Source: Streptomyces griseochromogenes (GTDB lineage: Bacteria; Actinomycetota; Actinomycetes; Streptomycetales; Streptomycetaceae). Taken from it: DNA of 64,000 nucleotides. Below are positions 3,344-19,791 of this stretch, one piece after another. A program made the position numbers and the translations under genes. The stretch covers positions 3,348,001-3,412,000 of the forward strand of contig NZ_CP016279.1 of NCBI RefSeq assembly GCF_001542625.1, in the 5' to 3' direction. Numbering within the stretch: position 1 is the first letter of the stretch; the number at the start of each line of letters is the position of its first letter. The notes below the pieces were generated by a model. It had not been told where the DNA came from. It was given only the letters and a program-made list of their open reading frames with translations, and made no database searches.

Positions 3344-4021
3344 ATGTTGCCGACCGGACTGCCGCAGGGAACCGTGCCCAAGCTGGAACGGCCCGGCCCG
3401 CTGCGCGACCGTGTCTACGAGGCGCTGCTGGAGCTGATCACCACCAGGGCCCTGCGGCCCGGCCGGCATCTGGTGGAGAGCGAACTCGCCGGCCATCTCG
3501 GTGTCTCCCGGCAACCGGTGCGCGAGGCGCTGCAGCGGCTGAACACCGAGGGCTGGGTCGAACTGCGGCCCGCGCAGGGCGCGTTCGTCCACGAACCCAC
3601 CGAGGAGGAGGCCGACCAGCTGCTGACGGTCCGCACGCTCCTGGAGGCGGAGGCGGCCCGGCTCGCCGCCCTGAACGCCGGCCGACCGGGCGTCGAAGCG
3701 CTGGAAGAGCTGTGCGCCGAGGGCGAGAAGGCGGTCGAGGCCGAGGACGTCGACCGTGCGGTCGCCCTCAACGCGGCCTTCCACGCCAAAGTGATGGAAC
3801 TGGCGGGCAACACGGTCCTCGCCGAACTGGCCGCCCAGGTCGACCGCCGGGTGCGCTGGTACTACACGCCGGTGGCTCACCAGCGCGGCCGGCAGTCCTG
3901 GATCGAGCACCGCGGTCTGATCACCGCGATCGCGGACCGTGACGAGCAGCGCGCCACCCACCTGATGCGCGAACACACCGAGCACACCCGACGCTCCTAC
4001 CACGAGCGCAACGCTTCCTGA
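3344..4021 (+). CDS. GntR-family transcriptional regulator with FCD domain
   Basis: A 225-residue FadR-subfamily regulator. The N-terminal winged helix (residues about 20-85) contains LGVSRQPVREALQRL. The all-helical FCD ligand domain (about 95-215) retains the usual metal-binding histidines (NAAFHAKV, WIEHRGLI, REHTEHT). ATG 3344 is preferred over an upstream in-frame start at 3209 because AGGAAGGGG lies about 7 nt before it. A 13 bp palindrome, GGTGGAGTCCACC, sits at 3277-3289 and is a candidate operator. FCD ligands are usually small carboxylates; the actual ligand here is unknown. Confidence 0.9.
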   Translation: MLPTGLPQGTVPKLERPGPLRDRVYEALLELITTRALRPGRHLVESELAGHLGVSRQPVREALQRLNTEGWVELRPAQGAFVHEPTEEEADQLLTVRTLLEAEAARLAALNAGRPGVEALEELCAEGEKAVEAEDVDRAVALNAAFHAKVMELAGNTVLAELAAQVDRRVRWYYTPVAHQRGRQSWIEHRGLITAIADRDEQRATHLMREHTEHTRRSYHERNAS

Positions 4022-4051
4022 CCCGGCACCGGCCCGCCGGCGAAGGGCCGT

Positions 4052-4090
4052 TCCCCCTGCGGCGATCGGCGAACGGATCGCGGAGGGGGA
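4052..4090 (+). terminator. Imperfect hairpin after GntR gene
   Basis: TCCCCCTGCGGCGATC at 4052-4067 pairs with GATCGCGGAGGGGGA at 4076-4090, with one bulge and one mismatch and a short loop. It lies 31 bp after the GntR stop, so it is a plausible terminator. Confidence 0.5.
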
Positions 4091-4116
4091 GTGGCGGGGA
4101 GCCGTGGGGCGGCGTC

Positions 4117-4581
4117 GTGACCGGTCGTCACGAGGTCGGCCGCGGCTCCACGGCCGGTGTCGTCCCGTTGCCGGTGCGGCCCGGCTGCCGCAGCAGCAGC
4201 GCGAGGGCCGCCGACGCCGGCATCGGCCTCGCGGTCGTGATCACCGAAGGCGTCCCGGTCCACGACACCGTCACCCTCACCGCCCACGCCGAGCGGCGCG
4301 GCACCCGCGTCATCGGCCCCAACCGCCCCGGCCTGATCACGCCCGGCCGGTCCGTCGCAGGCGTCATCCCCGCCGGCATCACCAAGCCCGTCGTCGGCTG
4401 CATCGCCGGATTCACCGCGCCCGAGGGCCGCACCATGGGGCACGCGGGCGCCATCGTCTCCGGCTCCACCGACACCGCGCGGGCGACGCAGGAGGCGCTG
4501 GAGGCGATCGGCGTCAGGGTCGGCGGCACCCCGACCGAGACGGCACGGCTGGTACTCGCACAGCTGCCCCGGACACAGTGA
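4117..4581 (+). pseudogene. Internally deleted succinyl-CoA ligase alpha subunit-like remnant (sucD-like)
   Basis: From about 4213 the frame reads clear SucD sequence: VVITEGVPVHDT, RVIGPNRPGLITPGRS, then AGVIPAGIT joined directly to KPVVGCIAGFTAPEG, TMGHAGAIVSG and the C-terminal end. The N-terminal CoA-binding Rossmann domain is absent. Roughly 70-90 residues that normally lie between the PAGIT and KPVVG blocks are also missing. The active-site histidine (TMGHAGAI) survives. The frame is still open, so a 154-residue product could be made, but it would lack the CoA site. The Cys usual in GPNCPG is Arg. It is best read as a decaying gene; an expressed fragment cannot be excluded. Confidence 0.7.
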
Positions 4582-4761
4582 TGTCACTCATAGTCCACCC
4601 CGGGTGACTGTCGGCTTCCATGCCCCTTCGGTAGCTTCTCGCACGACGTCCGGCGCACCAGGGTGCGAGTCGTACGCCGGACAGCCAGGCACCTCCAGCA
4701 GGCACGTCTTCCCCGAGATCAGCCATTTCTCTCGACCGTGCACCGAGAGCGGAGCAATCGC

Positions 4762-6303
4762 ATGGCACCCACCCTCACCCTCAAAACAGGAACGTCCTGG
4801 GCCGAGGCCTGGCGGCGCTGTCTCGCCGTCGCGCCGGAGGCCTTCCGGGACGATCGCGTTCTCAACCTCTGGGACACCGCCTGGCGGGCGGACGGCCGGG
4901 CGCTGCCCGCCACCAGCCCGGTCGACGGGGGCCCCATCGCGGGCCCGCCCCGCCTGGACCGGGCCGCCGCACGCCAGGCCGTCCGCGCCTCGCTCGACCG
5001 GCACCGCGCCTGGCGGCACCTTCCGCTCGCCGAGCGCCGCGCACGGGTCGCGGCCACCCTCGACGCGCTCACGGAACACCGCGACCTCCTCGCACTGCTC
5101 CTCGTCTGGGAGATCGGCAAGCCGTGGCGGCTCGCCCGGGCGGACGTCGACCGGGCCGTCGACGGGGTGCGCTGGTACCTGGACGGAATCGAGCCGATGC
5201 TGGCCGGCCGGACGCCGCTGGACGGCCCGGTCTCCAACATCGCGAGCTGGAACTACCCGATGAGCGTGCTCGTTCACGCCATGCTGGTCCAAGCGCTCGC
5301 CGGCAACGCGGTCATCGCCAAGACCCCGACCGACGGCGGCGTCGCCTGCCTGACCCTGGCCTGCGCGCTCGCCGCCCGCGAAGGGCTTCCCGTCAGCCTC
5401 GTCAGCGGAAGCGGAGGTGAGCTGTCCCAGGCGCTGGTCCGGGCGCCCGAGATCGGCTGTGTCTCCTTCGTCGGCGGCCGCGACACCGGCGCCGCGGTGG
5501 CCACCGCCGTCGCCGACCTCGGCAAGCGCCACATCCTGGAACAGGAGGGACTGAACACCTGGGGAATCTGGAACTACTCAGACTGGGACGCCCTCACCGC
5601 CCTCGTCCCCAAACTCTTCGACTACGGCAAACAGCGCTGCACGGCCTATCCGCGGTTCGTGGTCCAGCGGGACCTCTTCGACGAGTTCCTCCGCGCCTAC
5701 CTCCCCGCGGTGCGCCGGGTGCGCGTCGGCCACCCCCTGGCGGTGGAGCGCAGGGACGATCCGTACCCGGAGCTGGACTTCGGCCCGGTGATCAACGCGG
5801 CGAAGGCGAAGGAACTGCGGGACCAGGTCGCGGAGGCCATCGACCGCGGCGCCGTCCCCCTGCACCGCGCACGGCCGGCGGAGGCCCGCTTCCTGCCCGG
5901 CCAGGACACGGCGGCCTATGTCCAGCCGGTCACCCTCCTCAATCCGCCGCGCTCCTCCCCCCTCCACCACGCGGAGCCCTTCGGCCCGGTCGACACGATC
6001 GTCCTGGTCGACACGGAGGCCGAGCTGCTGGCCGCGATGAACGCCTCCAACGGCGCCCTGGTCGCGACCCTCTCCACGGACGACAGGACCACGTTCGACC
6101 GGCTGGCGCCGCAGATCCGAGCCTTCAAGATCGGCCACGGCAAACCGCGCTCGCGCGGCGACCGCGACGAGCTGTTCGGCGGCTTCGGCGCGTCCTGGCG
6201 CGGCGCCTTCGTGGGCGGGGAACTGCTCGTGAGGGCGGTGACCCAGGGGCCGGCGGGGGAGCGGCTGCCGGGGAACTTCCCGGAATACCAGCTCATGCCC
6301 TGA
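4762..6303 (+). CDS. Aldehyde dehydrogenase family protein (divergent)
   Basis: A 513-residue NAD(P)-dependent aldehyde dehydrogenase-fold protein. The Rossmann region (ASWNYPMSVLVH, AKTPTDGG, FVGGRDTG) and the C-terminal catalytic domain are present. The active-site cysteine is in GKQRCTAYPRFV, in place of the common GQxC context. The normally strict LELGG motif reads LEQEGLN, which keeps a Glu but not the canonical spacing. Start ATG 4762 has GGAG 7 nt upstream. Substrate cannot be told. It stands alone between the sucD-like remnant and tRNA-Leu, and the altered motif suggests an atypical subfamily. Confidence 0.85.
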   Translation: MAPTLTLKTGTSWAEAWRRCLAVAPEAFRDDRVLNLWDTAWRADGRALPATSPVDGGPIAGPPRLDRAAARQAVRASLDRHRAWRHLPLAERRARVAATLDALTEHRDLLALLLVWEIGKPWRLARADVDRAVDGVRWYLDGIEPMLAGRTPLDGPVSNIASWNYPMSVLVHAMLVQALAGNAVIAKTPTDGGVACLTLACALAAREGLPVSLVSGSGGELSQALVRAPEIGCVSFVGGRDTGAAVATAVADLGKRHILEQEGLNTWGIWNYSDWDALTALVPKLFDYGKQRCTAYPRFVVQRDLFDEFLRAYLPAVRRVRVGHPLAVERRDDPYPELDFGPVINAAKAKELRDQVAEAIDRGAVPLHRARPAEARFLPGQDTAAYVQPVTLLNPPRSSPLHHAEPFGPVDTIVLVDTEAELLAAMNASNGALVATLSTDDRTTFDRLAPQIRAFKIGHGKPRSRGDRDELFGGFGASWRGAFVGGELLVRAVTQGPAGERLPGNFPEYQLMP

Positions 6304-6402
6304 CCGGACGCACAGCGTAGATGTCCGGCCACCCTCCGTACGGCTCGGTGGCCGGGGCGCTCCCGGCTCCCCGGCCACCCGCCCGAGGCACGGATACGCA
6401 GG

Positions 6403-6431
6403 TGAAACGCACTCCGAAACCTTGCTATTGT
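6403..6431 (+). promoter_or_regulatory. Candidate promoter of tRNA-Leu
   Basis: TGAAAC (6403-6408) and TATTGT (6426-6431) are separated by 17 bp, about 50 bp before the tRNA. This is a reasonable housekeeping sigma-factor match in an otherwise GC-rich stretch. Confidence 0.35.
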
Positions 6432-6479
6432 TGTCCCTGTCGCCGCGGGGAACAGCCCCGGCAAGGCGGCAGACACCTG

Positions 6480-6564
6480 GTCCGGGTGGCGGAATGGCAG
6501 ACGCGCTAGCTTGAGGTGCTAGTGCCCTTTATCGGGCGTGGGGGTTCAAGTCCCCCCTCGGACA
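6480..6564 (+). tRNA. tRNA-Leu (anticodon GAG)
   Basis: An 85 nt class II tRNA without encoded CCA. The acceptor stem is GTCCGGG (6480-6486) against CTCGGAC (6557-6563), with discriminator A6564. The anticodon stem is CTAGC/GCTAG around loop TTGAGGT, with anticodon GAG at 6513-6515. There is a long variable arm (TGCCCTTTATCGGGCG), and the T arm GGGGGTTCAAGTCCCCC is intact. It decodes CUC/CUU. A recombinase-like relic just downstream suggests its 3' end was used as an integration site. Confidence 0.95.
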
Positions 6565-6579
6565 CTCTCCATAGAGACA

Positions 6580-6760
6580 CGAAAACGAGGGCCTCGACCT
6601 TACGGTCGCGGTCCTCGTCGCGTTGTGCGTGGTCGATCCGCTGGGTGACGATCGCCGGGTCGGCGTCGGTGTCGAGGGCGGCCTGGCAGCGGGCGAGGTG
6701 TCGCTCGCATTCCTTGATCGCCTGGCGAGCCTGGGCCTGCTTGCCGCGGATCGGCGAGGG
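6580..6760 (-). pseudogene. Relic of a serine recombinase C-terminal coiled-coil region
   Basis: On the minus strand, 6739-6596 reads KQAQARQAIKECERHLARCQ followed by AALDTDADPAIVTQRIDHAQ. This resembles the alpha-helical segment near the C-terminus of large serine integrases of actinomycete elements (typically ALDAGADPxxVxxWI). No catalytic domain is present and the frame has no convincing start. Its position within 40 bp of the tRNA 3' end fits a decayed integrative element. The assignment rests on a short match and is tentative. Confidence 0.45.
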
Positions 6761-7452
6761 CTGCGTCTTGCGTCCGCACCGCTTCCCCCTGGCCCGCGAC
6801 GGCCTTCGCCGGCTCCTCGACCCGCTCCCGGCGGCTCGCGACCGGAGCCACAGGCGGACATGCACGGACCAGGTCGACGTTCAGGCATGTTCGAACATGC
6901 GCAGTTTCGTTTAAAACAACCTACAGAGGCCTTGACAGTCTTGAGTGGGGGCGCGGTACAACTACCGCACCGCACATGAGGCAATGACCGACCACTGAGG
7001 TGGGTGAGGGCCTCGCCGCCAGTCGGGGCAACGCTGGAAGCGCCATGCGTGGACTGCTGCTCCACGATGTCGAAGAGGGGGCGTCAAACAAAATCCAACT
7101 GATCCCTTCGTCGCGTCGTCGGCAGGGATCACTGATGGCGAGCTCTCGTTCGCGTTCGCCGACCGAACCGACCGCCTCAACGCGGATCACATGCGGCTGA
7201 ACGCCAACGTTCCACCGTCGTTCGCCTGTTCAGGCAAGTGCCCACATCACGCAGCTCCGCTTCGTTCTCAATGACTCGCCGCACAACGGGGATGCCCAGC
7301 TCCAGCTCTCTCGCGCGCGTCATCTGCTGTAGCCGCATGCGGCGGGACGGCCCCGAGGTCCACGGCATGCGGGCCGAAGGCGCCTTCCCCCCGAAACGCC
7401 GACCGCTTGCCGTTCGGTATCGCTGAAGTTCTCCTCAGGAAGGACGATCCTG
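6761..7452. other. Gene-poor stretch of about 690 bp between recombinase relic and GH59 gene
   Basis: I see no convincing gene here. Base composition is visibly less GC-rich than the neighbours around 6890-7280. The stretch holds one good promoter-like sequence (6932-6962). Short open frames on both strands (for example 7177-7368, minus) have no recognisable motifs. The region looks like degraded mobile-element DNA. The end (7437-7444, AGGAAGGA) is the ribosome binding site of the GH59 gene. Confidence 0.5.
6932..6962 (+). promoter_or_regulatory. Promoter-like sequence without an obvious gene
   Basis: A perfect TTGACA (6932-6937) is followed after 19 bp by TACAAC (6957-6962). It points right toward a region with no clear gene until 7453. 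It may be the GH59 promoter with a long leader, or a leftover of the decayed element. Confidence 0.4.
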
Positions 7453-9954
7453 ATGCCTGTCAGAACGCACCCCCATCCCGTCGGCATGAGAGCCCCACGC
7501 CTTTGGGCGGCTGCCCTCGCCGTCGTCGGGCTCTGCCTGGCGCTGGTCACCGGAGTGGCACCAGGCCGCGCTCACGCCGCGACCGCGACCGCGATCAGCG
7601 TCGACGGCAACTCCCAGGGCCGCACGTTCGACGGCGTGGGAGCCATCAGCGGTGGCGGGGGCAACACCCGCCTGCTCGTCGACTACCCCGAGCCGCGGCG
7701 CAGCCAGATCCTCGACTACCTCTTCAAGCCCGGCTACGGCGCATCCCTGCAGATTCTGAAGGTGGAGATCGGCGGCGACACCAACACCACCGACGGCGCC
7801 GAGTCCAGCATCGAACACTCGCCCGGCACCATCAACTGCAACAACGGGTACGAGTGGTGGCTGATGCGGCAGGCCAAGCAGCGCAACCCGCACATCAAAC
7901 TGTACGGTCTCGCCTGGGGCGCTCCGGGCTTCCTCGGCGGCCACGACTTCTGGTCCACCACCTCTCCCTCGACGGTGGACTACCTCATGAACTGGCTCGA
8001 CTGCGCCAAGCAGCACAACTTCACCATCGACTACCTCGGCGGCTGGAACGAGAGGTACGACCGCGCGAAAAGCCCCGCCTGGTACGAAGCCCTGCACGCC
8101 GCCCTCGCGAAGCACGGCTATGCCACGAAGGTGGTCGGCGCCGACAACGACTGGGCGATAGCGGACGACATCGCGTCCGACTCCGCGCTGTCCTCGGCGG
8201 TGGACATCGTCGGCGCGCACTACGTCTGCGGCTACCGAAGCAGCCAGACCAACTGCTCCAGCACGGCCAACGCGCAAGCCTCCGGAAAGCAACTGTGGGC
8301 GAGCGAGAACGGCTCGGACGACGCCGATGCCGGAGCCATGGCGATGGCCCGTGGCATCAACCACGGCTATCTGGACGCCAAGTTGACCGCCTACATCAAC
8401 TGGCCGCTCGTCGCCTCGATCTCCCCCAACCTCGACTACAACGGGGTGGGCCTGGTCCAGGCCAACCAGCCCTGGTCCGGCGCCTACAACGTCGGCCGCA
8501 GCACCTGGACGATGGCGCAGACCAGCCAGTTCACCTCCCCAGGGTGGAAGTACCTGGACACCTCCAGCGGCTATCTCGGCGGCAACCGGGCGGGCGGCAG
8601 CTACGTCAGTTACGCGGCCCCGGACAAGTCCGCCTGGAGCACGGTGTTCGAGACCATGGACGCCACCGCCGACCAGACCGTCTCCCTCTCCGTCACGGGC
8701 GGGCTGCCCGGCGGCACCCTGCACGTCTGGACGACCGACCAGAATGCCGGCCAGCCGCGCATGGTGGCCGCGCCGGACCTGTCGGCCACCGGCGGCACCT
8801 ACCAGCTCACCCTGCAGCCCAAGCACCTCTACACCGTCACCACGACCACCGGGCAGGCACCCGGCACCGTCACGGGCCCGCAGCGCACCCCGCAGCCGCT
8901 CCCGTACTCCGACAGCTTCGCCGGCTACCCCTCAGGCGCGGAGGCCAAGTACTTCGCCGGCATGAACGGTGCCTTCGAGGCGGCGCCCTGCGGCGGAGGG
9001 CGCAGCGGCCAGTGCCTGCGCCAGATGACCACCACCCCGCCGATCCAGTGGACCAACGAGACCGCGAACCAGCCCTACACCACGATGGGCGACGTCAACT
9101 GGTCCGACTACACCGTCTCCACCGACGTACTGCTGGAAAGGTCCGGAGGCGCAGCCGACCTGCTCGGCCACGTCGGCTGGCAGAAACAGAACAACAACGG
9201 CCTCAACGCCTACCACCTGACGCTGGACACCACGGGCACATGGGCTCTGCAGAAGAGCGACCAGTCGTGGAACTTCACCACGCTGTCCAAGGCAAGCGGC
9301 AAAATCGCCAAGGTCCACGGCACCGACACCTGGCACAAGCTCTCGCTCACCTTCCAGGGCAGCACCATCACCGCGAAGATCGACGGTACCCAGGTCGCCA
9401 GCGTCACCGACACCAGCTACGGCGCCGGACAGATCGGACTCGGCACCGTCTGGGACACCAAGACCCACGGATACTACGGCGTCCAGTACTCCAACCTGTC
9501 CGTCACCCCTGGTACGGCACCGAGCCTGAAGGGGACGTACAACCTCGTCAACGTCAACAGCGGCATGCTGCTCGACGCTGCCGACGAAGGCACCTCGGAC
9601 GGAACGCCGATCATCCAGTGGCCGGCCAACGGCGGGGCGAACCAGAAGTGGACGCTGACCGCCAACGCGGACGGCTACTACACCATCACCAACGTCGGCA
9701 GCGACAAGACACTGGACGTCCCGGCCGAAACCATGTTGCCCGGCACCCAACTGGACCTGTGGGGAGCCAACGGAGGTACGAACCAACAATGGGCGGTGAC
9801 ACCTTCGACCAACGGGGCCTACACCATCGAATCCCGTAACAGCGGCCACCTGGTCGATGTATCGGGCGCTTCGACCAGCCAGAACACCCCGGTGATCCAG
9901 TGGAATCCGAACGGAGGCAGCAACCAGCAGTGGAAGCTGGTGAAGGCCGGATGA
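7453..9954 (+). CDS. Secreted GH59-type galactocerebrosidase-like glycosidase with C-terminal ricin-type lectin domain
   Basis: An 833-residue exported protein. A signal peptide ends near AHA (residues about 1-43). The catalytic part begins with GRTFDGVGAISGGGG, characteristic of GH59 galactosylceramidases, and continues with GLAWGAPGFLGG. The expected acid/base Glu is E200 in GGWNERY and the nucleophile Glu is E285 in WASENGS. A beta-sandwich region (about 470-690) follows. The last ~140 residues form a ricin-type trefoil (CBM13) with NQKW and two NQQW repeats. AGGAAGGA lies 8 nt before ATG 7453. Likely substrates are terminal beta-galactosides on glycans or glycolipids, outside the cell. 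It is not in an operon and is followed by a strong hairpin. Confidence 0.88.
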   Translation: MPVRTHPHPVGMRAPRLWAAALAVVGLCLALVTGVAPGRAHAATATAISVDGNSQGRTFDGVGAISGGGGNTRLLVDYPEPRRSQILDYLFKPGYGASLQILKVEIGGDTNTTDGAESSIEHSPGTINCNNGYEWWLMRQAKQRNPHIKLYGLAWGAPGFLGGHDFWSTTSPSTVDYLMNWLDCAKQHNFTIDYLGGWNERYDRAKSPAWYEALHAALAKHGYATKVVGADNDWAIADDIASDSALSSAVDIVGAHYVCGYRSSQTNCSSTANAQASGKQLWASENGSDDADAGAMAMARGINHGYLDAKLTAYINWPLVASISPNLDYNGVGLVQANQPWSGAYNVGRSTWTMAQTSQFTSPGWKYLDTSSGYLGGNRAGGSYVSYAAPDKSAWSTVFETMDATADQTVSLSVTGGLPGGTLHVWTTDQNAGQPRMVAAPDLSATGGTYQLTLQPKHLYTVTTTTGQAPGTVTGPQRTPQPLPYSDSFAGYPSGAEAKYFAGMNGAFEAAPCGGGRSGQCLRQMTTTPPIQWTNETANQPYTTMGDVNWSDYTVSTDVLLERSGGAADLLGHVGWQKQNNNGLNAYHLTLDTTGTWALQKSDQSWNFTTLSKASGKIAKVHGTDTWHKLSLTFQGSTITAKIDGTQVASVTDTSYGAGQIGLGTVWDTKTHGYYGVQYSNLSVTPGTAPSLKGTYNLVNVNSGMLLDAADEGTSDGTPIIQWPANGGANQKWTLTANADGYYTITNVGSDKTLDVPAETMLPGTQLDLWGANGGTNQQWAVTPSTNGAYTIESRNSGHLVDVSGASTSQNTPVIQWNPNGGSNQQWKLVKAG

Positions 9955-9983
9955 CCGATCGGCACTGACCACTGTCCACCGCG

Positions 9984-10023
9984 CTGGATTCCCCGCCCCT
10001 TCGCCTTTCCGCGGGGAATCCAG
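9984..10023 (+). terminator. Terminator of the GH59 gene
   Basis: CTGGATTCCCCGC (9984-9996) and GCGGGGAATCCAG (10011-10023) form a perfect 13 bp stem with a 14 nt loop, 30 bp after the stop codon. Confidence 0.8.
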
Positions 10024-10318
10024 CCGAGCAGGCCATCCGGGTGACGGCCGCGGTCCTCGTCGCGCTGTCGTGGACGGGACGCCGATCAGTGCTTCCACCG
10101 CCCCCGCCGAGTCGGCCTCATCCCCACCCGAGAACACACCTTCCTCGCCGATCTCACCCAGCTCACCCTCCTCACCCGACCCCCGCCCATCCGGCCTGAC
10201 ACCCCCGGGCCGAGGCGCGCGGCGGCCGCCTCCTTCATGCCTCTGAACTCCCTTTCCGTACCAGTCGGGGCCGGATAGCCTGCCCTGGCTCGGGCACAGC
10301 GATACAGGGGGAGCCAGC

Positions 10319-12832
10319 ATGTCCATCCGGCCGCAGTACCGGCGGGTGTCAGCCCTGCAGCGGCAGTTCTTCAATCGGGAAGGCACGCTCGCCGCTTACG
10401 ACGAGGAACTGCGGACTCTCGGGGAGGGACCCCGCATCCTGAACGTCGTCGGCATCGGCGGAATCGGGAAGTCCCGGCTGCTGCAGGAGTTACGCAACCG
10501 CAGTCCGAAAAACTGCCGGACCGCCCGCCTCGACCTGCAGTTGCCGACGATGCGCCAGCAGGAGGACGCTCTCGCCGTGCTGCGCATGGAATTCGGCGCA
10601 CAGGGGCTAAAGTTCGACCGGTTCGACATCGCCTATGCCGTGCTCTGGCAACGGGTGCACCCGCAACTACAGCTGAACCGGCGGAACACCCCCTTCGCCG
10701 AGGAGAGCGACATCCTCATGAAGATCCTCGACGATGCGATGGGCCTCCCGGTCTTCGGAACGGCGGCCGGCCTGGTCCGGCTGACCGGCCGTGCGGTCAA
10801 GAACCGCCAGCGCCGTCAGCGGATCGAGGCCGACCCCACCCTGAACGAGCTCGACGGACTCAGCAACGCCGAGCTGGGGCACGCGGTTTCGTACCTCTTC
10901 GCCGATGAGCTGAGGGCCTCCGCGCAGGAGGCACCCTACGTCGTGTACGTCGACGCCTATGAGGCGCTCGTGCCCACGCCCCTGCCCGGCGGCCGCAGCT
11001 TCGGCACGGACGCCTGGCTGCGCGACCTGCTCGGTCAGCTCCACGGCGGTCTGACCGTGCTGGCCAGCCGCGAGCCCCTGCCCTGGGCGGCGTACGACCC
11101 CGAATGGGAGTCGGTGATCTGCCGGACCGACATCGACGGCCTCCCCATGCCCGCCCGGCTGGAACTGCTCGCCCAGGCGGGCATCACGGAGATCCCCCGG
11201 CAGCGCTCGATCGCCGAAGCCAGTGAAGGCGTGCCCTTCTACCTCCATCTGGCCGTCGACACCCATCTGCAGAACCCGGCACGGCTCGAGCACGCCGCCA
11301 CGTCCGAGGAGATCGTCCAGCGGTTCCTGCAGCATGTCGCCCCCGACGAAGTGCGGATCCTGGAGCTGCTCAGTGTGGCCCGGACCTTCGACTTCGTGGT
11401 GTTCCAGACCATTTCCCGCGCCTTCGACCTGCCCGCGAACCTCCTGATCTGGGAATCGCTCACCGCCTACTCCTTCGCCTACCCCCTGACCGACGGCTGG
11501 TACCGGCTGCACCAGCTCATGATCGGTGCGCTGCAGCGCCACCTTTCGCCCGCGGTCCGGCGGCGGGTGCACGCCGTGCTCCGCGCCCACTGGGAGGGCC
11601 TCGCGGACCGGATGGAGCGAGGCCAGGGGCCGGGCGGCGGCAGGACCCGCCTCTCCCCGCTCCGGGAGGCCGTCTACCACGGGCTGCGTGCCGCCGACAT
11701 CACCCCGGACGAGATCCAGAGGCACGCCGACAGGTCCGTCGTGCTGAGCGGCAGGCAGGCCGTCGACGGCATCGTGAAGGACCTCAGGCACCATCTGGCC
11801 GCGAGGAGGGCGGACCGGGTCGAGGGCCAGGACGACGAGGCGGTGGCCGGCCTCCACAACGCCGCGGACTGCCTCGACGCGGAGTCGAGACTGGAGCTGG
11901 GTGACGCCGCCGGCGCCATCGCGCTCACCCCGCACCTGGACCGGCCGGTACGCGAGCTGGTGTCCGCGAGGCTCGCGCTCGCGGGGGCCAACGCCCGCCG
12001 CATCGCCGGTGAGAGCACCCTGGCCGCCACGATCTTCGAACGGGTCTGGGCGGAGCACGAAGGCGAGGCGCGGCCCACCGCGGGCTTCTGCGTCGCCGAC
12101 ATCCGTATGTGGCAGGGCGACTTCGCGGGGGCGTTCTCGCTGGCCGAGGAGGTGCACGGGATCTGCGCCGCCGACGAGGCGGTCATCCGGGCCGACCTGA
12201 AGCGGCTCATGCACCTCGGACACCGCTTCCTGATGGACTTCGACAGCTCGGCGCGGCTCCTCGCCGAGGCCGAGGCCGAATACCAGGCGTCGAACGCGCT
12301 GGTGGGCCTGGCCAACATCAGGACCAACCACGCCGAGCTGTACGCCTTCACCGATCCGGAAGCGGCGGTGGAGGCCGCCTCCTCGGCGCTTGAGGTGCAG
12401 CGCGATCTGGGGGCGCAGCACGAGATCGGCAAGGCGTACACTGCCATGGCCATGGCACAGACCAGACTGGGGCAGTACGAGAGGGCCTCATCCTCGTTCC
12501 TGAACGCCAATGCGGCCCTCGACCGGGCGGGTTACCGCTCCGGCAGGGCCCGGGCCGACATGTTCCGGGCGTTCCTCATGCTGCGGCAGGGCGACCGGCA
12601 GGGCACCCGGGAACTCCTGGTGCACGCGGCCCGCGAGTTCGTGGCCTGCCAGGTCTATCCGTCGCTGATCCTGGCGATCCACCGGGCCGCCGAGCGGATC
12701 GGCGTCGACGAACCCGAGCTGACGGCACTCGCCGGGCGGGCCCGGCCCGCCGTACGCCCGCTCGGTTCCCTCGACGAACTCCAGCGTCGTACCGACTCGG
12801 TCCTGTCGATGTTCCTCGAGGTGGGCGCATGA
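10319..12832 (+). CDS. STAND-type P-loop ATPase with helical/TPR-like C-terminal half
   Basis: An 837-residue protein. Walker A is VVGIGGIGKSRLL (P-loop residues about 45-52) and the Walker B-like strand is YVVYVDAYEAL (D212). An LTVLASREPL sensor strand and a winged-helix-like stretch follow (about 340-420). Residues about 510-830 are helical with TPR character (AYTAMAMAQTRLGQYERASS). This architecture is that of STAND switches, which couple ligand sensing on the repeats to nucleotide-driven oligomerisation. No effector domain is fused; the two kinases encoded immediately downstream, the first overlapping by ATGA, may be the output. Codon 58 is TTA (10490-10492), rare in Streptomyces and read by the bldA tRNA, so translation is probably developmentally limited. 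Confidence 0.8.
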   Translation: MSIRPQYRRVSALQRQFFNREGTLAAYDEELRTLGEGPRILNVVGIGGIGKSRLLQELRNRSPKNCRTARLDLQLPTMRQQEDALAVLRMEFGAQGLKFDRFDIAYAVLWQRVHPQLQLNRRNTPFAEESDILMKILDDAMGLPVFGTAAGLVRLTGRAVKNRQRRQRIEADPTLNELDGLSNAELGHAVSYLFADELRASAQEAPYVVYVDAYEALVPTPLPGGRSFGTDAWLRDLLGQLHGGLTVLASREPLPWAAYDPEWESVICRTDIDGLPMPARLELLAQAGITEIPRQRSIAEASEGVPFYLHLAVDTHLQNPARLEHAATSEEIVQRFLQHVAPDEVRILELLSVARTFDFVVFQTISRAFDLPANLLIWESLTAYSFAYPLTDGWYRLHQLMIGALQRHLSPAVRRRVHAVLRAHWEGLADRMERGQGPGGGRTRLSPLREAVYHGLRAADITPDEIQRHADRSVVLSGRQAVDGIVKDLRHHLAARRADRVEGQDDEAVAGLHNAADCLDAESRLELGDAAGAIALTPHLDRPVRELVSARLALAGANARRIAGESTLAATIFERVWAEHEGEARPTAGFCVADIRMWQGDFAGAFSLAEEVHGICAADEAVIRADLKRLMHLGHRFLMDFDSSARLLAEAEAEYQASNALVGLANIRTNHAELYAFTDPEAAVEAASSALEVQRDLGAQHEIGKAYTAMAMAQTRLGQYERASSSFLNANAALDRAGYRSGRARADMFRAFLMLRQGDRQGTRELLVHAAREFVACQVYPSLILAIHRAAERIGVDEPELTALAGRARPAVRPLGSLDELQRRTDSVLSMFLEVGA

Positions 12833-13821
12833 ACTGGCAGACGGTGTACGCAGAGGCCCAAAGAGCGGGCGAGGCCGCGGCCGGGTACTACAACCGGAAC
12901 GTCGGCGTGTGGACGCCCGAAGGGAAGGTGAACGTCCGCATCCCCCTCGCAGCCGCAGACGTCATGGACGTACGCGTGTGGCACGAGGAGGACGTGCTCG
13001 CCTGTATCCGGCCCTATGTCGCGCGGGCACCCGAGCTGCGCCATGTGTCGGGGTCTCCCCGGTTCCAGGTCCACCACTTCATCGAGGGGCGGGTACTGGA
13101 CAGTTTCTCCCCCCGGAAAAGCGCCGTCCCCGCTCATGTGATCGATGACGTGGTGGAGGTGATGGACCAGCTCACCCGCATCCCGCAGGAGAAGACGCCG
13201 TCCCTGCCGGACGACTGGCCGGAATCGGGGGACAGCGGCGGGTTCGGCCGCCTGCTGGCCCGCCTCACCCAGCAGGTCTACGACGCCCACCGGGAGGAGT
13301 ACGGGGCCGTGTTCGCCGACTTCGGGATCCCGGACGAGCCGCTCGCGGTCGTCGAGCCGCTGTGGGACGGGCTCACCTCCCGCCCGTTCGCGGTACTCCA
13401 CGCCGACCTGCACCGCAAGAACATGATCGTCTCCAGCGGGTCGACCTGGTTCCTCGACTGGGAGCTGGCGCTGTGGGGCGATCCCATGTACGAGATCGGA
13501 ATCCACCTCCACAAGATGGATTACCCCGACGACCAGCGCGCCGAGGCCCTCCGGCAGTGGCGTGCGTGCCTGCCGGCGGCGTCCACGGCCGGACCGGTGG
13601 CGGACCTGGATCTGTACCTGGCGCACGAGCGCGTCAAGTCGGGGATCGTCGACACGATCCGCTACTCCAAACAGCTCGCGGCGGCCGACGAACCGGAACG
13701 GGAGTTCCTCATCGGCCGGCTGGCGCGGAAGCTGAACGTGGCCCGGGCGGTGTGGGGCGAGAAACCGACGATGACTCCGGAGCGGGTCGCTCGGGCACTG
13801 GCGCCGTGGGCAGAGAGATAG
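12829..13821 (+). CDS. Aminoglycoside phosphotransferase/choline kinase-fold protein, copy 1
   Basis: 330 residues. The kinase-fold signature is intact: HADLHRKNMI with catalytic Asp193 and Asn198, then FLDWELALWGDP with the metal-binding Asp210. The N-terminal lobe is short, and no classical nucleotide-positioning lysine is obvious. Such proteins phosphorylate small molecules such as antibiotics, amino sugars or choline, or occasionally act as unusual protein kinases. Its ATG overlaps the ATPase stop (ATGA), implying translational coupling. It is a tandem paralogue of the next gene, sharing the Tyr-Asn-Arg-Asn / Tyr-His-Arg-Asn and DWELALWGDP blocks. Substrate is unknown. Confidence 0.82.
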   Translation: MNWQTVYAEAQRAGEAAAGYYNRNVGVWTPEGKVNVRIPLAAADVMDVRVWHEEDVLACIRPYVARAPELRHVSGSPRFQVHHFIEGRVLDSFSPRKSAVPAHVIDDVVEVMDQLTRIPQEKTPSLPDDWPESGDSGGFGRLLARLTQQVYDAHREEYGAVFADFGIPDEPLAVVEPLWDGLTSRPFAVLHADLHRKNMIVSSGSTWFLDWELALWGDPMYEIGIHLHKMDYPDDQRAEALRQWRACLPAASTAGPVADLDLYLAHERVKSGIVDTIRYSKQLAAADEPEREFLIGRLARKLNVARAVWGEKPTMTPERVARALAPWAER

Positions 13822-13823
13822 TC

Positions 13824-14822
13824 ATGGACGCCATGGCGCTGTACGAAGAGGCACGCGCGCACGAGAACGCGCTCTCCGGCTTCTACCACCGCAACGTACG
13901 GGTGGAGGACGACTCCGGGCCCTTACTGGTGCGGATCCCGGGCCCCGGCGCCGAGCCGATGGACCTCACCCTCTGGCCGGAGCCCGAAGTGCTCCGGGCC
14001 ATCCGCCCGTTCGTGTCCCGGGCACCACGACTCGTCCACGCAGGAGTCAGCCCGGACTTCCAGATCCACGAGTTCATCGCCGGACGCCGGGTCGACGAGA
14101 TCGCGCAGGACGGCAAGCCGTTGCCGGACGTCGTCCTCGACGGTGTGGAACAGTTCTTCGGCGAGGTCCTGCGGGTGCCGACCGCCGCTCTTGCCGCCGT
14201 GCCGCCCGGCTGGCCGGACGACGGGGACACACCCGGCTTCGCGCGGTGCCTCCTCGACTTCGCACGCCATCTGCGGGACCGGGCGGACGCTTCGGTGGAC
14301 GCCCTGTACCAGGCGCTGGGCGTGCCCGCGGACCCCTGTGGCCCGCTCTTGGAGCGGGCGGGCCGGGAGCTCGCACGGCGGCCGTTCCGCCTGCTGCACG
14401 GCGACATCCATCGCAAGAACATGATCCTTTCCGGTCGGGCCGGACTGGTCGTTCTGGACTGGGAACTCGCCCTGTGGGGGGATCCCCTCTACGACCTGGC
14501 GGATCATCTGCACAAGACCGCGTACACGGCGGCGGACCGCCAACGGACCGTCGCGGGCTGGGAGCGGGCGGCCCCCGCCGACTGTCGTGCGGGCGCGCCG
14601 GCCGGCCTCGGCTTCTACCTCGCCTACGAGGAGATGAAATCGGCCCTGGTGGACACCGTCCGCTGGGGCCGTCGCATCGTGGAAGCCCCAGCGGGCCGCG
14701 AGCGCCAGGCGCTGGCCGCGGAACTCCGGACGAAGCTCCTCGCGGCGCGCCCGCACTGGGACGCCGGGCCTCTGCCCGAGGCGGCGGAGATCGAGGACAC
14801 CACGCTGCGCCTGCTGGGGTGA
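13824..14822 (+). CDS. Aminoglycoside phosphotransferase/choline kinase-fold protein, copy 2
   Basis: 332 residues, starting 2 bp after the stop of the first kinase. Motifs are RLLHGDIHRKNMI (catalytic Asp194) and VVLDWELALWGDPLYDLADHL. It aligns end to end with copy 1, including the N-terminal ALSGFYHRNVRV versus AAGYYNRNVGV, so the pair arose by tandem duplication. Both active sites look complete, so both may be catalytic on related substrates. Codon 34 is TTA (13923-13925), so like the ATPase it should need bldA. A GC-rich hairpin follows directly. Confidence 0.82.
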   Translation: MDAMALYEEARAHENALSGFYHRNVRVEDDSGPLLVRIPGPGAEPMDLTLWPEPEVLRAIRPFVSRAPRLVHAGVSPDFQIHEFIAGRRVDEIAQDGKPLPDVVLDGVEQFFGEVLRVPTAALAAVPPGWPDDGDTPGFARCLLDFARHLRDRADASVDALYQALGVPADPCGPLLERAGRELARRPFRLLHGDIHRKNMILSGRAGLVVLDWELALWGDPLYDLADHLHKTAYTAADRQRTVAGWERAAPADCRAGAPAGLGFYLAYEEMKSALVDTVRWGRRIVEAPAGRERQALAAELRTKLLAARPHWDAGPLPEAAEIEDTTLRLLG

Positions 14823-14824
14823 CC

Positions 14825-14856
14825 CGCCCCGCCGCCCCAGCGCGGAGGGCGGGGCG
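14825..14856 (+). terminator. Hairpin ending the ATPase-kinase operon
   Basis: CGCCCCGCC (14825-14833) pairs with GGCGGGGCG (14848-14856) across a 14 nt loop, starting 3 bp after the stop codon. Confidence 0.5.
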
Positions 14857-14969
14857 CCGCCGAGCACCGGGAGACCGTCGCCGGAGTACGGCGGCGGGCC
14901 CGTACGGAAGCGTTCCGCAGGGCGAACAACCCGAGGACGGCTGATCCGTCGGCCGGACACACCGCCGGG

Positions 14970-15167
14970 ATGACTCATCATGATCGAGACGTTCCGGTCG
15001 CGGGGTTCCGCTTCAAGCCCACGCTGAGCTGGTCCTGCTGCGGCCGGTCCGACCAGGACGACCGTCTGGACCTCGCCGTGGTGGAGAAGGCGACGGGGGA
15101 CGCCGTCGTCATGTCGATCCTCGCGCCGGAGTGGGTCGAGCACGGCGGGCTGCCCAGGGGAGCGTGA
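14970..15167 (+). CDS. Small hypothetical protein
   Basis: A 65-residue frame with strong Streptomyces codon bias. It reads FRFKPTLSWSCCGRSDQDDR, then a C-terminal half rich in acidic and hydrophobic residues. I do not recognise a family, and no signal or membrane segment is evident. The ribosome-binding site is weak (CCGGGA). It may be a small conserved actinomycete protein or a fragment. A 9 bp-stem hairpin follows at 15230-15257. Confidence 0.4.
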   Translation: MTHHDRDVPVAGFRFKPTLSWSCCGRSDQDDRLDLAVVEKATGDAVVMSILAPEWVEHGGLPRGA

Positions 15168-15229
15168 CCAGACCGCACGGCCCTGAAAGGGGCTCGGAAG
15201 GCGTGTCGCGCAGGCCGGCCGGCCAAAGG

Positions 15230-15257
15230 GCGGGCACGCCGAAAATGACGTGCCCGC
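15230..15257 (+). terminator. Hairpin between small ORF and EF-G leader
   Basis: GCGGGCACG (15230-15238) pairs perfectly with CGTGCCCGC (15249-15257) around CCGAAAATGA. It could end the upstream transcript. Confidence 0.5.
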
Positions 15258-15355
15258 GGCCGATCTCCCCGCCTACACTCGCCACGCACCCGGCCGAGCG
15301 CCCGATCAGGGCCCGCCGTGTGCCGATCAGTCCGACGAACGAGGGGAGCCCGGCC

Positions 15356-15609: not shown

Positions 15610-17667
15610 GTGCGCACGAACGCCAACCCTCTCACCGCCGTCCGCAACCTCGGCATCCTCGCCCACGTGGACGCGGGCAAGACCACCGTCACCGAGCGGA
15701 TCCTGTACGCGACGGGCATCACCCACAAGCGCGGCGAGGTGCACGACGGCACCACCGTCACCGACTTCGACCCCCAGGAACGCGACCGCGGCATCACCAT
15801 CTTCGCCGCGGCCGTCAGTTGCGCCTGGGACGGCCACCGCGTCAACCTCATCGACACACCCGGCCACGTCGACTTCGCCGACGAAGTGGAACGCTCGCTA
15901 CGGGTCCTCGACGGGGCGATCGCCGTCTTCGACGCCGTCGCCGGGGTCGAGCCGCAGAGCGAGTCCGTGTGGCGGCAGGCCGACCGGCACGGCGTACCGA
16001 GGATCGCCTTCGTGAACAAGCTGGACCGCGCGGGCGCCGACCTAGACCGGGCCGTCGGCTCGATCCGGGAGCGGCTGCATCCCGCCCCGCTCGTCGTCCA
16101 GTTGCCGATCGGGGCCGAGGACGCCTTCACCGGGGTCGTGGACCTGGTGCGCATGCGCTCCCTGGTCTGGGGCGACGGAAGCGGTACGGCGGTGGAGGGG
16201 CCGGTTCCCGAGGGGCAGCGGGAAGAGGCACTGCGGCGGCGCCGGGCACTGGAGGAGGCCGTGGCGGAACTGCATCCGGCCGCGCTGGAGGAGTTCTGCG
16301 CGCGGTCCGCGCTGTCCGAGCCGACCCTGGTGGCCGCCCTGCGCGAACTCACCCGTACCGGCGAGGGCGTGGTCGTACTCTGCGGCTCCGCCTACCGCAA
16401 CCGCGGTATCGAACCGCTCCTGGACGCGGTGGTGGCCTATCTGCCGTCGCCGCTGGACGTGCCCGCCGTACGCGGCGTGCACGAGGGCGGCGGACAGCGG
16501 CGGGCCGCCGATCCCGACGCGCCGTTCGCGGCGCTCGCCTTCAAGGTGAACGTGAGCGGCACCGGGCGCCTGACCTATGTGCGCGTCTACTCGGGCACGA
16601 TCGAGAAGGGAGACACCCTGTGGGACCCGGGCACCGGGCGCACCGAGCGGGCGGCGCGGATCCTGCGCGTCATGGCGGACCGGCATGTCCAGCTGGACCG
16701 GGCGGTCGCCGGGGACATCGTCGCGCTGGCGGGGCTGAAATCGGCGCGGGCCGGTTCGACCCTGTGCGATCCGGGCGCCCCGCTGCTCCTGGAGCCGCCC
16801 GTCGTCGCCGAGCCCGTGGTGTCCGTGGCCGTCGAGGCGCGGCGCGGCACGGACACCGGGCGACTGGCGGCCGCGCTGGCCCGGCTGGTGGAGGAGGATC
16901 CCTCGCTGATGGTGCGCACCGACGCCGAGACCGGGCAGACCGTGCTGTCCGGGATGGGGGAACTCCATCTGGAGGTCGCGGCGGAGAAGATCCGCCGGAA
17001 CGGAGGACCGGAGCTCGCCGTGGGCCGGCCGCGGGTCGCCCACCGCGAGACGGTCGCGGACGGAGTGACCGGGTTCGTGTTCCGGCACGTCAAACAGGAC
17101 GGCGGGGCGGGGCAGTTCGCCCATGTCGTGCTCGACGTGGAGCCGCTCGGCCCCGGAGCCGGCGTCACCGGCTTCGCGTTCCGGTCCGCCGTGGTCGGCG
17201 GGCGGGTGCCGCAGGAGTATGTGCGTGCGGTGGAGGCCGGGTGCCGGGACGCGCTCGCCGAGGGGCCGCTGGACGGGCACCCGGTGACCGGGTTGCGGGT
17301 CACGCTGACCGACGGCTCGACCCATGTGAAGGACTCCTCCGACACGGCGTTCCGCACGGCCGGCCGACTGGGGCTGCGCGCGGCGCTCCGCGCCTGCGTG
17401 ATGGCCCTGCTGGAACCGGTGGCCGAGGTCACGGTCACCGTGCCGGACGATGCCGTCGGCTCGGTGCTCGGGGACCTGGCCGCCCGGCGCGGCAGGGTCA
17501 CCGGCTCCGAGAACCGGGGCGGCGCGGCGGTGCTGACCGCCACCGTGCCGCTGGCCGAACTGTTCGGCTACGCGACCCGGTTGCGCAGCCGCACCCAGGG
17601 CCGGGGCACCTTCACGACCCGGCCCGCGGGCTACGCCCCGGCGCCGCGACCGGTGCCGGTCCGGTAG
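15610..17667 (+). CDS. Elongation factor G paralogue (second EF-G)
   Basis: A 685-residue translational GTPase with all EF-G parts. G1 is AHVDAGKT, G2 lies in the [11 protein letters not shown] region, G3 is DTPGH, G4 is NKLD and G5 is CGSAY. Domain II ([19 protein letters not shown]) follows, then domains III-V ([29 protein letters not shown]). It starts at GTG 15610, with GAAAGG at 9 nt; an upstream in-frame start would add a non-homologous tail. It is more divergent than housekeeping fusA and is not in the str operon, so it is a duplicate such as the S. coelicolor SCO6589 type. It may act in ribosome rescue, stress or drug tolerance; none of this can be shown from sequence. Confidence 0.9.
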
Positions 17668-18579: not shown

Positions 18580-19791
18580 GTGCCCCGTGCCGTATACGTT
18601 CTGGCGCTCGGCATCTTCGCCATGGTGACCAGTGAGTTCGCGGTCGCCGGACTGATGCCGCAGATGGCCGACGGCCTGCACGCCACCGTGCCGCAGATCG
18701 GATATCTCATCACCGCGTTCGCCTCCGCGATGGCCCTCGGCGGGCCGGTCATGACCGTGGCGGTGATGAAACTCCCGCCGCGCACGGCCCTGTTGGTACT
18801 CTTCGCGGTCTTCCTCGCGGGCAATGTCCTGGCCGCCACCGCGACCGGCTACGGTGTGATGCTGGCCGCCCGTGTCGTCACCGGCGTCGCGTCCCAGGCC
18901 TTCTTCGGCGTCGGGATCTCCCTGTGTGCCCGGCTGACCCGGCCGGAGATACGGGGACGCGCCGTCGCCGTGGCCATGAACGGACTGATGCTCGGCACAC
19001 TGCTCGGCCTGCCCCTGTCCACACTGATCGGTGAACGGCTCGGCTGGCGCGCGGCGTTCTGGGCCGTCTCCGTTCTCGCCCTGGTCGCGGCTGGGGCCAC
19101 CATGGCCGGTGTGCCCCGGCTGGAGAACGCCCCGAGCGGGGGTCTGCGCGCCGAGGCCGGTGTCTTCGCGCGGCCCCGGCTGTGGCTGGTGCTTGCCACC
19201 AGCACCCTGATCATCGGGGCCACCTTCGCCGCGTTCAGTTACTTCAACCCCATCCTGACCGGCCTCACCGGTTTCTCCGCCGGCACCGTGCCGCTGCTGC
19301 TCATCGCCTACGGCGCCGCCACCGTCGTCGGCAACATGGTCGTCGGCCGCCTCGCCGACCGGCACGCCGTGCCCGTGCTCGTCGTGGGCCTTCTGCTCAA
19401 CCTGCTCTTCCTGGCGGGCTTCGCGCTTCTCGCCGACGTGCCCGCCGCGGCCGTGGTCTGCCTGCTCGGCATCGGCCTCGTCGGCGTCACCATGAACCCG
19501 GCGATGGCCACCCGCGTCCAGCGCGCCGGCAACGCCGGGCCGCTAGTCAACACCGTGCACACCTCCTTCATCACGCTCGGCGTCATCATCGGCTCGTCCC
19601 TCGGCGCGGTCGCCATCGATGCCGGGAGCCTGCGCGGTCCCCTCTGGTTCGGCGCCGCCCTGGCCGCCCTCGGCCTCCTCACCCTCCTGCCCGAGATGCG
19701 CCGCCCCGGCCGCGCGGCGGGGCGGCGAGGCAGGACGGTGGCCCGCGGAGGCACGGGGCGGGAGGCGCGGGAAAGGGCGAGGAGGGGCTGA
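18580..19791 (+). CDS. MFS drug/sugar efflux transporter (DHA1, AraJ-like)
   Basis: 403 residues with 12 predicted hydrophobic segments, starting with VYVLALGIFAMVTSEFAVAG, the DHA1 signature region. A cytoplasmic loop (GRLADRHAVPV) and an Arg-rich cytoplasmic tail follow. It begins at GTG 18580 after CAAGGAGAA. Proteins of this type export drugs or sugars by proton antiport. The upstream TetR gene is its likely repressor. The substrate is not identifiable. It converges on the ROK gene with a hairpin between. Confidence 0.9.
   Translation: MPRAVYVLALGIFAMVTSEFAVAGLMPQMADGLHATVPQIGYLITAFASAMALGGPVMTVAVMKLPPRTALLVLFAVFLAGNVLAATATGYGVMLAARVVTGVASQAFFGVGISLCARLTRPEIRGRAVAVAMNGLMLGTLLGLPLSTLIGERLGWRAAFWAVSVLALVAAGATMAGVPRLENAPSGGLRAEAGVFARPRLWLVLATSTLIIGATFAAFSYFNPILTGLTGFSAGTVPLLLIAYGAATVVGNMVVGRLADRHAVPVLVVGLLLNLLFLAGFALLADVPAAAVVCLLGIGLVGVTMNPAMATRVQRAGNAGPLVNTVHTSFITLGVIIGSSLGAVAIDAGSLRGPLWFGAALAALGLLTLLPEMRRPGRAAGRRGRTVARGGTGREARERARRG

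What the first reader, a model, noticed from the sequence alone, without database searches (positions are those of the whole stretch)
10319..14822. Operon of a STAND ATPase with two tandem phosphotransferase-fold kinases: a candidate undescribed signalling or self-protection system
The three genes are coupled (ATGA overlap, then a 2 bp gap) and end in a terminator. STAND proteins are molecular switches in regulation, cell death and phage defence. Here no effector is fused, and the kinases may be the output. The tandem kinases are paralogues with both active sites complete. I know of no named system with this composition.
Basis: partly seen in the sequence, partly recalled or inferred. Interest (0 to 1): 0.85.

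Follow-up and report, generated by a model that had tools for sequence, protein, structure and literature searches.

The report
Molecular switch driving small-molecule kinases
This is a compact, mobile three-gene unit in Streptomyces in which an immune-receptor-like molecular switch is tied to two enzymes that look like small-molecule kinases; it is conserved and apparently undescribed, but what triggers it and what it phosphorylates are unknown.

Summary
A STAND ATPase (837 aa, 10319-12832) is coupled to two paralogous APH-fold kinases (12829-13821; 13824-14822), catalytic residues intact. Only the claimed terminator is weak: a GC-rich hairpin without a T-run.

The unit is real. All 14 Streptomycetaceae loci read hold ATPase-K1-K2 in that order. 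In 17 loci outside that family the same ATPase has one kinase, adjacent (10) or fused behind its TPR domain (7). The fusions make the kinase the likely output arm. Flanking genes are shared only between close loci; the window's copy lies in an 11-kb variable site. It is sporadic: 6 of 295 sampled genomes of the genus, own included.

AlphaFold models: the ATPase resembles a solved STAND-TPR protein (6mfv); the kinase resembles choline kinase LicA and antibiotic kinases. Distant relatives of the STAND-TPR chassis carry an ADP-ribosylglycohydrolase where the kinase sits, or an N-terminal rhomboid domain: a switch with swappable outputs.

Most likely mechanism: NLR-like switching that recruits and activates metabolite kinases. 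An anti-phage role is plausible (about 0.4) but unproven: no PADLOC model fits, and the neighbour scan was inconclusive. The paper searches brought up no description of it.

The parts
10319..12832 (+). STAND ATPase with C-terminal TPR region (837 aa)
   Evidence: Walker A and B residues, GxP and WHD histidine invariant in 46 of 46 aligned relatives
10451..10474 (+). Walker A (P-loop) GIGGIGKS, residues 45-52
   Evidence: sequence; G45, G47, G48, G50, K51 invariant in 46 of 46
11657..12817 (+). TPR / alpha-solenoid region (about residues 447-833), presumed sensor
12829..13821 (+). kinase 1 (K1), APH / choline-kinase fold
13399..13422 (+). K1 catalytic loop HADLHRKN
   Evidence: sequence; H191, D193, H195, R196, N198 invariant in 37 of 37 aligned kinases
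13824..14822 (+). kinase 2 (K2), paralogue of K1, 39% identical
   Evidence: Pfam APH E 8e-21; K2 rows form one clade, 13 of 13
14397..14420 (+). K2 catalytic loop HGDIHRKN
   Evidence: sequence, alignment
10273..10281 (+). GGATAGCCT, possible -10 element of the operon's own promoter
   Evidence: upstream alignment of 10 loci: T77, A78, C81, T82 invariant; promoter function inferred; the sigma-70 consensus scan found nothing
14810..14870 (+). GC-rich hairpin at and after the last stop, possible terminator without T-run
   Evidence: fold (z -1.9); pattern scan negative
4021..15341 (.). variable cargo site that holds the operon
   Evidence: alignment to relative G016 stops at window 4021 and resumes at 15341, with about 17 kb of other DNA between in G016; within the site, 4733-6303 is shared with G009

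Best explanation
A two-component, NLR-like switch. (1) The TPR region of the ATPase senses an inducer [inferred from fold]. (2) The ATPase goes from an ADP-bound monomer to an ATP-bound oligomer, as established for other STANDs [inferred from intact motifs and fold]. (3) The kinase, docked at the TPR end (it is fused there in other lineages), is thereby brought together or activated [linkage and fusion shown; activation inferred]. (4) It phosphorylates a small molecule, K1 and K2 acting on the same or a similar substrate [fold and shared signature shown; substrate unknown]. (5) The whole works as a mobile conflict unit, most likely against phages or another intracellular threat [weakly supported, about 0.4]. 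The stated confidence is for steps 1-4.
For: All 14 Streptomycetaceae loci read keep ATPase-K1-K2; 17 loci outside have one adjacent kinase, in 7 of them fused as ATPase-kinase, and 5 such fusions were also read among database proteins. STAND motifs invariant in 46 of 46, kinase motifs in 37 of 37. ATPase fold: Foldseek's first PDB hit is 6mfv, a STAND protein with a TPR sensor. Kinase fold: LicA, Mph, APH(2''). STAND-linked kinases form a supported clade (95/97) and keep H228, K229 and K270 in 43 of 43 rows; K229 and K270 are absent from all 10 HAD-linked kinase rows, H228 from 6 of those 10. The same chassis carries an ADP-ribosylglycohydrolase in the kinase's place or an N-terminal rhomboid domain. 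Sporadic occurrence, flanks shared only between close loci.
Against: No experiment. No PADLOC model fits. The PADLOC scan of 78 flanking proteins was inconclusive and had no control set. ATPase and K1 have no relative in 50,697 phage records (K2 not searched). Two class genomes (G520, G625) have a complete kinase of this clade with no ATPase in the stretches read, and a third (G502) only an ATPase remnant, so the kinase can exist alone. The ATPase model is of moderate confidence (pTM 0.62) and its match to 6mfv is modest over the whole length (TM 0.31/0.38).
Confidence: 0.6

Rival explanations
1. Drug or toxin self-protection: the kinases inactivate an intracellular antibiotic, and the STAND protein is the drug-sensing gate. 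The two kinases would cover two positions or two compounds.
For: Solved folds nearest to K1 include macrolide, APH(2'') and corramycin kinases; the only sub-threshold PDB sequence relatives at E about 0.01 are hygromycin kinase; mobile, sporadic cargo.
Confidence: 0.22
2. Signalling or development: the STAND switch controls phosphorylation of an endogenous metabolite (nucleoside, sugar, lipid head group) or of a protein or peptide, tuning physiology rather than defence.
For: Other STAND-TPR proteins regulate metabolism or antibiotic synthesis (MalT, AfsR; starts of abstracts of PMC10427625, PMC4381067 and PMC10936776). Paralogous kinases belong to a HAD-GntR-kinase locus in Streptomyces. TvaE in complex with TvaLP is among the fold matches (that TvaE acts on a RiPP peptide is recalled).
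Against: 6 of 295 occurrence in the genus, non-syntenic sites and decayed copies (L043, L068) are unusual for housekeeping control.
Confidence: 0.28
3. Chance neighbours: an ATPase and two kinases that merely sit together.
For: Two genomes hold the kinase without the ATPase.
Against: 14 of 14 and 17 of 17 loci with a full ATPase, repeated fusion, kept stop/start overlap, correlated divergence of ATPase and K1 (r 0.92, 13 loci).
Confidence: 0.01

Closest known systems
STAND ATPases with TPR sensor (PH0952/6mfv, MalT, AfsR)
   Same: NOD with Walker A, Walker B, GxP and WHD histidine, then a TPR region
   Different: no DNA-binding effector found; the output is a separate or C-terminally fused APH-fold kinase
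APH / choline-kinase-like small-molecule kinases (LicA, Mph, APH(2''))
   Different: paired with a STAND protein in 19 of the 22 class genomes with a kinase of at least 458 bits; own signature H228-K229 and K270; 9-16% identity to the solved chains listed
STAND-TPR-ADP-ribosylglycohydrolase proteins (e.g. Nonomuraea L069; P0241, P0306)
   Same: same STAND-TPR chassis: the profile of kinase-linked ATPases matches P0241 over positions 9-790, 109.8 bits
   Different: an ARH domain in place of the kinase; NadD-like, SIR2-like or PfkB genes nearby in some
vWA-MoxR ternary conflict systems with rare APH-kinase effectors (Kaur et al. 2020, PMC7159879, passages seen)
   Different: different NTPase (MoxR) and adaptor (vWA); neither appears in the Pfam scan of these three proteins
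HAD-APH kinase-GntR loci of Streptomyces
   Same: paralogous kinases, also in tandem or fused pairs at several loci
   Different: no match to the STAND profiles in the stretches read; lack K229 and K270; separate in the tree

Membership tests
STAND ATPase | P-loop NBD (Walker A and B) | tested here: met
   G45, G47, G48, G50, K51, D212, E215 invariant in 46 of 46
STAND ATPase | GxP motif in the helical domain | tested here: met
   G304 and P306 in 46 of 46; motif named in PMC6468293 (passages)
STAND ATPase | winged-helix domain with nucleotide-sensing histidine | tested here: met
   H398 in 46 of 46, L/F-H-Q context; equivalence to PH0952 H382 inferred from position
STAND ATPase | repeat sensor after the NOD | tested here: met
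STAND ATPase | curated STAND/NB-ARC/AAA profile above cut-off | tested here: not met
   AAA_16, nSTAND6 and NB-ARC all below cut-off; the class is defined by motifs and fold, the profiles cover only some clades
STAND ATPase | inducer-dependent oligomerisation | not testable with these tools
   needs protein
APH-fold kinase superfamily | family profile and fold | tested here: met
APH-fold kinase superfamily | catalytic residues (R37, E53, HxDxHRKN, D210) | tested here: met
   37 of 37; the roles of R37 and E53 in ATP binding are recalled, not tested
Known aminoglycoside or macrolide resistance kinase | NCBIfam family cut-off | tested here: not met
   all far below cut-off
Known anti-phage system in PADLOC-DB | match to a PADLOC model | tested here: not met
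   0 families at E up to 1 for the three proteins; library of 2023
Anti-phage STAND (Avs-like) | protection against phage, phage-protein trigger | not testable with these tools
   no assay
Ternary conflict systems (Kaur et al.) | MoxR plus vWA or other adaptor domains | tested here: not met
   no such domain in the three proteins; K1 shows only a sub-threshold TCAD9 match, 12.4 bits against 40; no gene outside the system was shared by all 30 loci compared

The most novel reading that the evidence does not exclude
A new branch of bacterial NLR-like conflict systems in which the effector is a metabolite kinase: an inducer-sensing STAND-TPR hub switches on APH-fold kinases that phosphorylate a key small molecule and so stop an intruder or the cell. 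It would be one member of a modular STAND-TPR family that swaps its enzyme output (APH kinase, ADP-ribosylglycohydrolase, rhomboid protease).
Probability: 0.38. Interest if true: 0.82.

Novelty: new variant of a known kind. Interest (0 to 1): 0.62.

Why it matters
Known STAND or NLR-like outputs are mostly nucleases, proteases, NADases, DNA-binding or adhesion domains (recalled). A small-molecule kinase as the dedicated output would add a chemistry, and its substrate would point to an unrecognised vulnerable or signalling metabolite. The separate, fused, single and tandem forms give a ready comparative set, and the swap with ADP-ribosylglycohydrolase makes the chassis idea testable.

Tried and rejected
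Chance neighbours: rejected by conservation and fusion. Canonical terminator and sigma-70 promoter: none found. Extra conserved component: among 30 loci compared, the gene clusters present in all 30 were the system itself and its antisense frames; the best cluster outside the system was in 6 of 30. Defence island: 78 flanking proteins from 22 loci were scanned with PADLOC (chosen by eye as the nearest, from 190 candidate ORFs of at most 650 aa, themselves from 211). 46 families matched at E 1e-5 or better, the 25 shown each in one protein; no control set was scanned, so this is inconclusive. The variable site in relative G016 holds genes that read like condensation, acyl-carrier and acyl-CoA-dehydrogenase genes (reading only), so it is not a dedicated defence site. 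Phage carriage: none for ATPase or K1. Plasmid carriage: only distant STAND hits in Nonomuraea and Priestia, and kinase relatives in 8 records, the best on a Nocardia plasmid beside a helix-turn-helix gene. Priestia's neighbour is called HEPN only by its annotator; Pfam gave no match, so I do not rely on it. Charge of the kinase C-lobe gave no clear substrate hint. Kinase alone in G520 and G625, kinase with an ATPase remnant in G502, and a partial kinase without ATPase in G578 speak against a strictly obligate pair. The viral structure library returned choline/ethanolamine kinases and protein kinases and added no function. One search (genus of G436) gave 1 of 2 genomes and added nothing. Literature: brought up no paper describing an APH kinase with a STAND protein as a system (listings seen; open-licence PMC papers only); one related passage is in PMC7159879.

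Full report
OBSERVATION. ATPase and K1 share ATGA; K1 and K2 are 2 bp apart. K1 and K2 are 39% identical and match Pfam APH well above cut-off. The ATPase matches no Pfam or NCBIfam model above cut-off and no PADLOC model at E up to 1. Each is present once in the genome apart from the K1/K2 pair itself, at E up to 0.001 for the ATPase and 0.01 for the kinase. A pattern scan found no terminator; a GC-rich hairpin lies at the end. A GGATAGCCT element lies at a spot where T, A, C and T are kept in 10 of 10 aligned upstream regions, which suggests the operon's own promoter (inference).

THE UNIT IS CONSERVED. A scan of genome contigs gave 10 loci, all titled Streptomyces or Yinghuangia, all with ATPase-K1-K2. 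With the window and L046, L047 and L049 this makes 14 of 14 (L048 repeats L012 and is not counted). Sampled genomes with an ATPase match: 6 of 295 in the genus, own included, and 22 of 394 in the class. Of the 22, 19 have a substantially complete ATPase (G609 only as two pieces at contig ends) and all 19 have the kinase next to it or fused; G446, G511 and G529 hold fragments or decayed copies. Outside Streptomycetaceae 17 loci with a full ATPase have one adjacent kinase: 10 separate (two of them in genome G478, one cut by the contig end), 7 in one open frame of 1,152-1,254 codons with the ATPase first (L051, L053, L054, L055, L059, L061, L065). L056 has a further kinase fragment about 7 kb away. 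In the database search 5 of the best 120 relatives listed are ATPase-kinase fusions on reading (P0107, P0110, P0113, P0116, P0118). Conversely, of 22 class genomes with a kinase of at least 458 bits, 19 have the ATPase, one (G502) has only a C-terminal remnant of it next to the kinase, and two (G520, G625) have none in the stretches read.

EVOLUTION. In a tree of 53 kinase domains, K1 (13 of 13 rows) and K2 (13 of 13) are each one clade, and the 43 STAND-linked kinases group together (95/97) apart from the HAD-linked kinases (the tool warns of long branches there). K2 falls with the single and fused kinases at weaker support (85/94), so the duplication may predate Streptomycetaceae. Yinghuangia nests among Streptomyces rows, which suggests transfer. 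ATPase and K1 distances correlate (r 0.92), ATPase and K2 less (0.80); K2 is the most divergent. Relatedness alone gives some correlation, so this is supporting only. Flanking genes are shared only between close loci. In G000 the operon sits between backbone points 4021 and 15341; relative G016 has other cargo there.

MODULAR CHASSIS. A Nonomuraea relative found by tblastn (26% identity) is the same STAND-TPR followed by an ADP-ribosylglycohydrolase domain. A search with that protein aligned to a Priestia relative found 176 proteins and listed 120, of which 69 carry PF03747. A profile built only from kinase-linked ATPases, run on those 120, matches P0241 over positions 9-790 (109.8 bits) and P0306 over 66-802 (132 bits); in 10 of the 120 one stretch runs from before position 60 to beyond 300 at over 30 bits, while in others the P-loop piece is matched weakly and apart. 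The added domain thus occupies the place of the kinase. Other relatives carry an N-terminal rhomboid domain (L072, P0357). A Streptomyces STAND-TPR gene is followed by a separate ADP-ribosylglycohydrolase gene (L175), though its STAND match is weak (E 1e-10). This fits a switch with interchangeable outputs, as in conflict systems, but does not prove conflict.

FUNCTION. Shown: conserved coupling, fusion, intact active-site residues, predicted folds, variable genomic sites. Inferred: switch-gated kinase activity. Open: inducer, substrate, biological role. I give about 0.4 to anti-phage or similar conflict, 0.28 to endogenous signalling, 0.22 to drug detoxification, the rest to other roles. Against defence: no PADLOC match, inconclusive neighbours without a control, no phage relatives of ATPase or K1.

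KNOWN WORK. PMC6468293 (passages) gives the STAND-TPR architecture used for the membership test. PMC7159879 (passages) reports APH kinases as rare effectors in vWA-MoxR systems and an APH kinase coupled in an operon with a HAD protein in actinobacteria; the latter resembles the HAD-GntR-kinase locus seen here in Streptomyces. The paper searches brought up no paper naming a STAND-APH-kinase system; the library lacks most subscription papers.

Noticed in passing
L069:5716-9306; P0241, P0306; L197-L200: A large family of STAND-TPR proteins fused to ADP-ribosylglycohydrolase. Genes that read like NadD lie nearby in L197-L200 (Pfam cytidylyltransferase-like for L197), and a SIR2-like gene directly follows one (L199:7724-8548).
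   Followed up: partly
L119-L126: Streptomyces locus with GntR-like regulators, a HAD hydrolase and tandem or fused APH kinases, paralogues of K1 and K2.
   Followed up: partly
window 15619-17667: Elongation factor G-like gene (TIGR00484, 770 bits) next to a TetR-like gene and a Cmx/CmrA-like MFS gene below cut-off (18580-19791).
   Followed up: partly
window 7453-9954: Glycosyl hydrolase family 59 protein with ricin-type lectin domain; a broken second copy lies at about 5.50 Mb of the same genome.
   Followed up: partly
L128:1065-8603: An orphan kinase of this clade (G625) close to genes that read like a DUF1156-type methyltransferase and a large partner, a possible defence locus (reading only).
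   Followed up: no
L072, P0357: Rhomboid protease domain N-terminal to the same STAND-TPR chassis.
   Followed up: partly
P0086: A relative labelled Mycobacterium tuberculosis in a public record; 51% identical to this ATPase, like the Actinomadura members listed around it, so possibly mislabelled.
   Followed up: no
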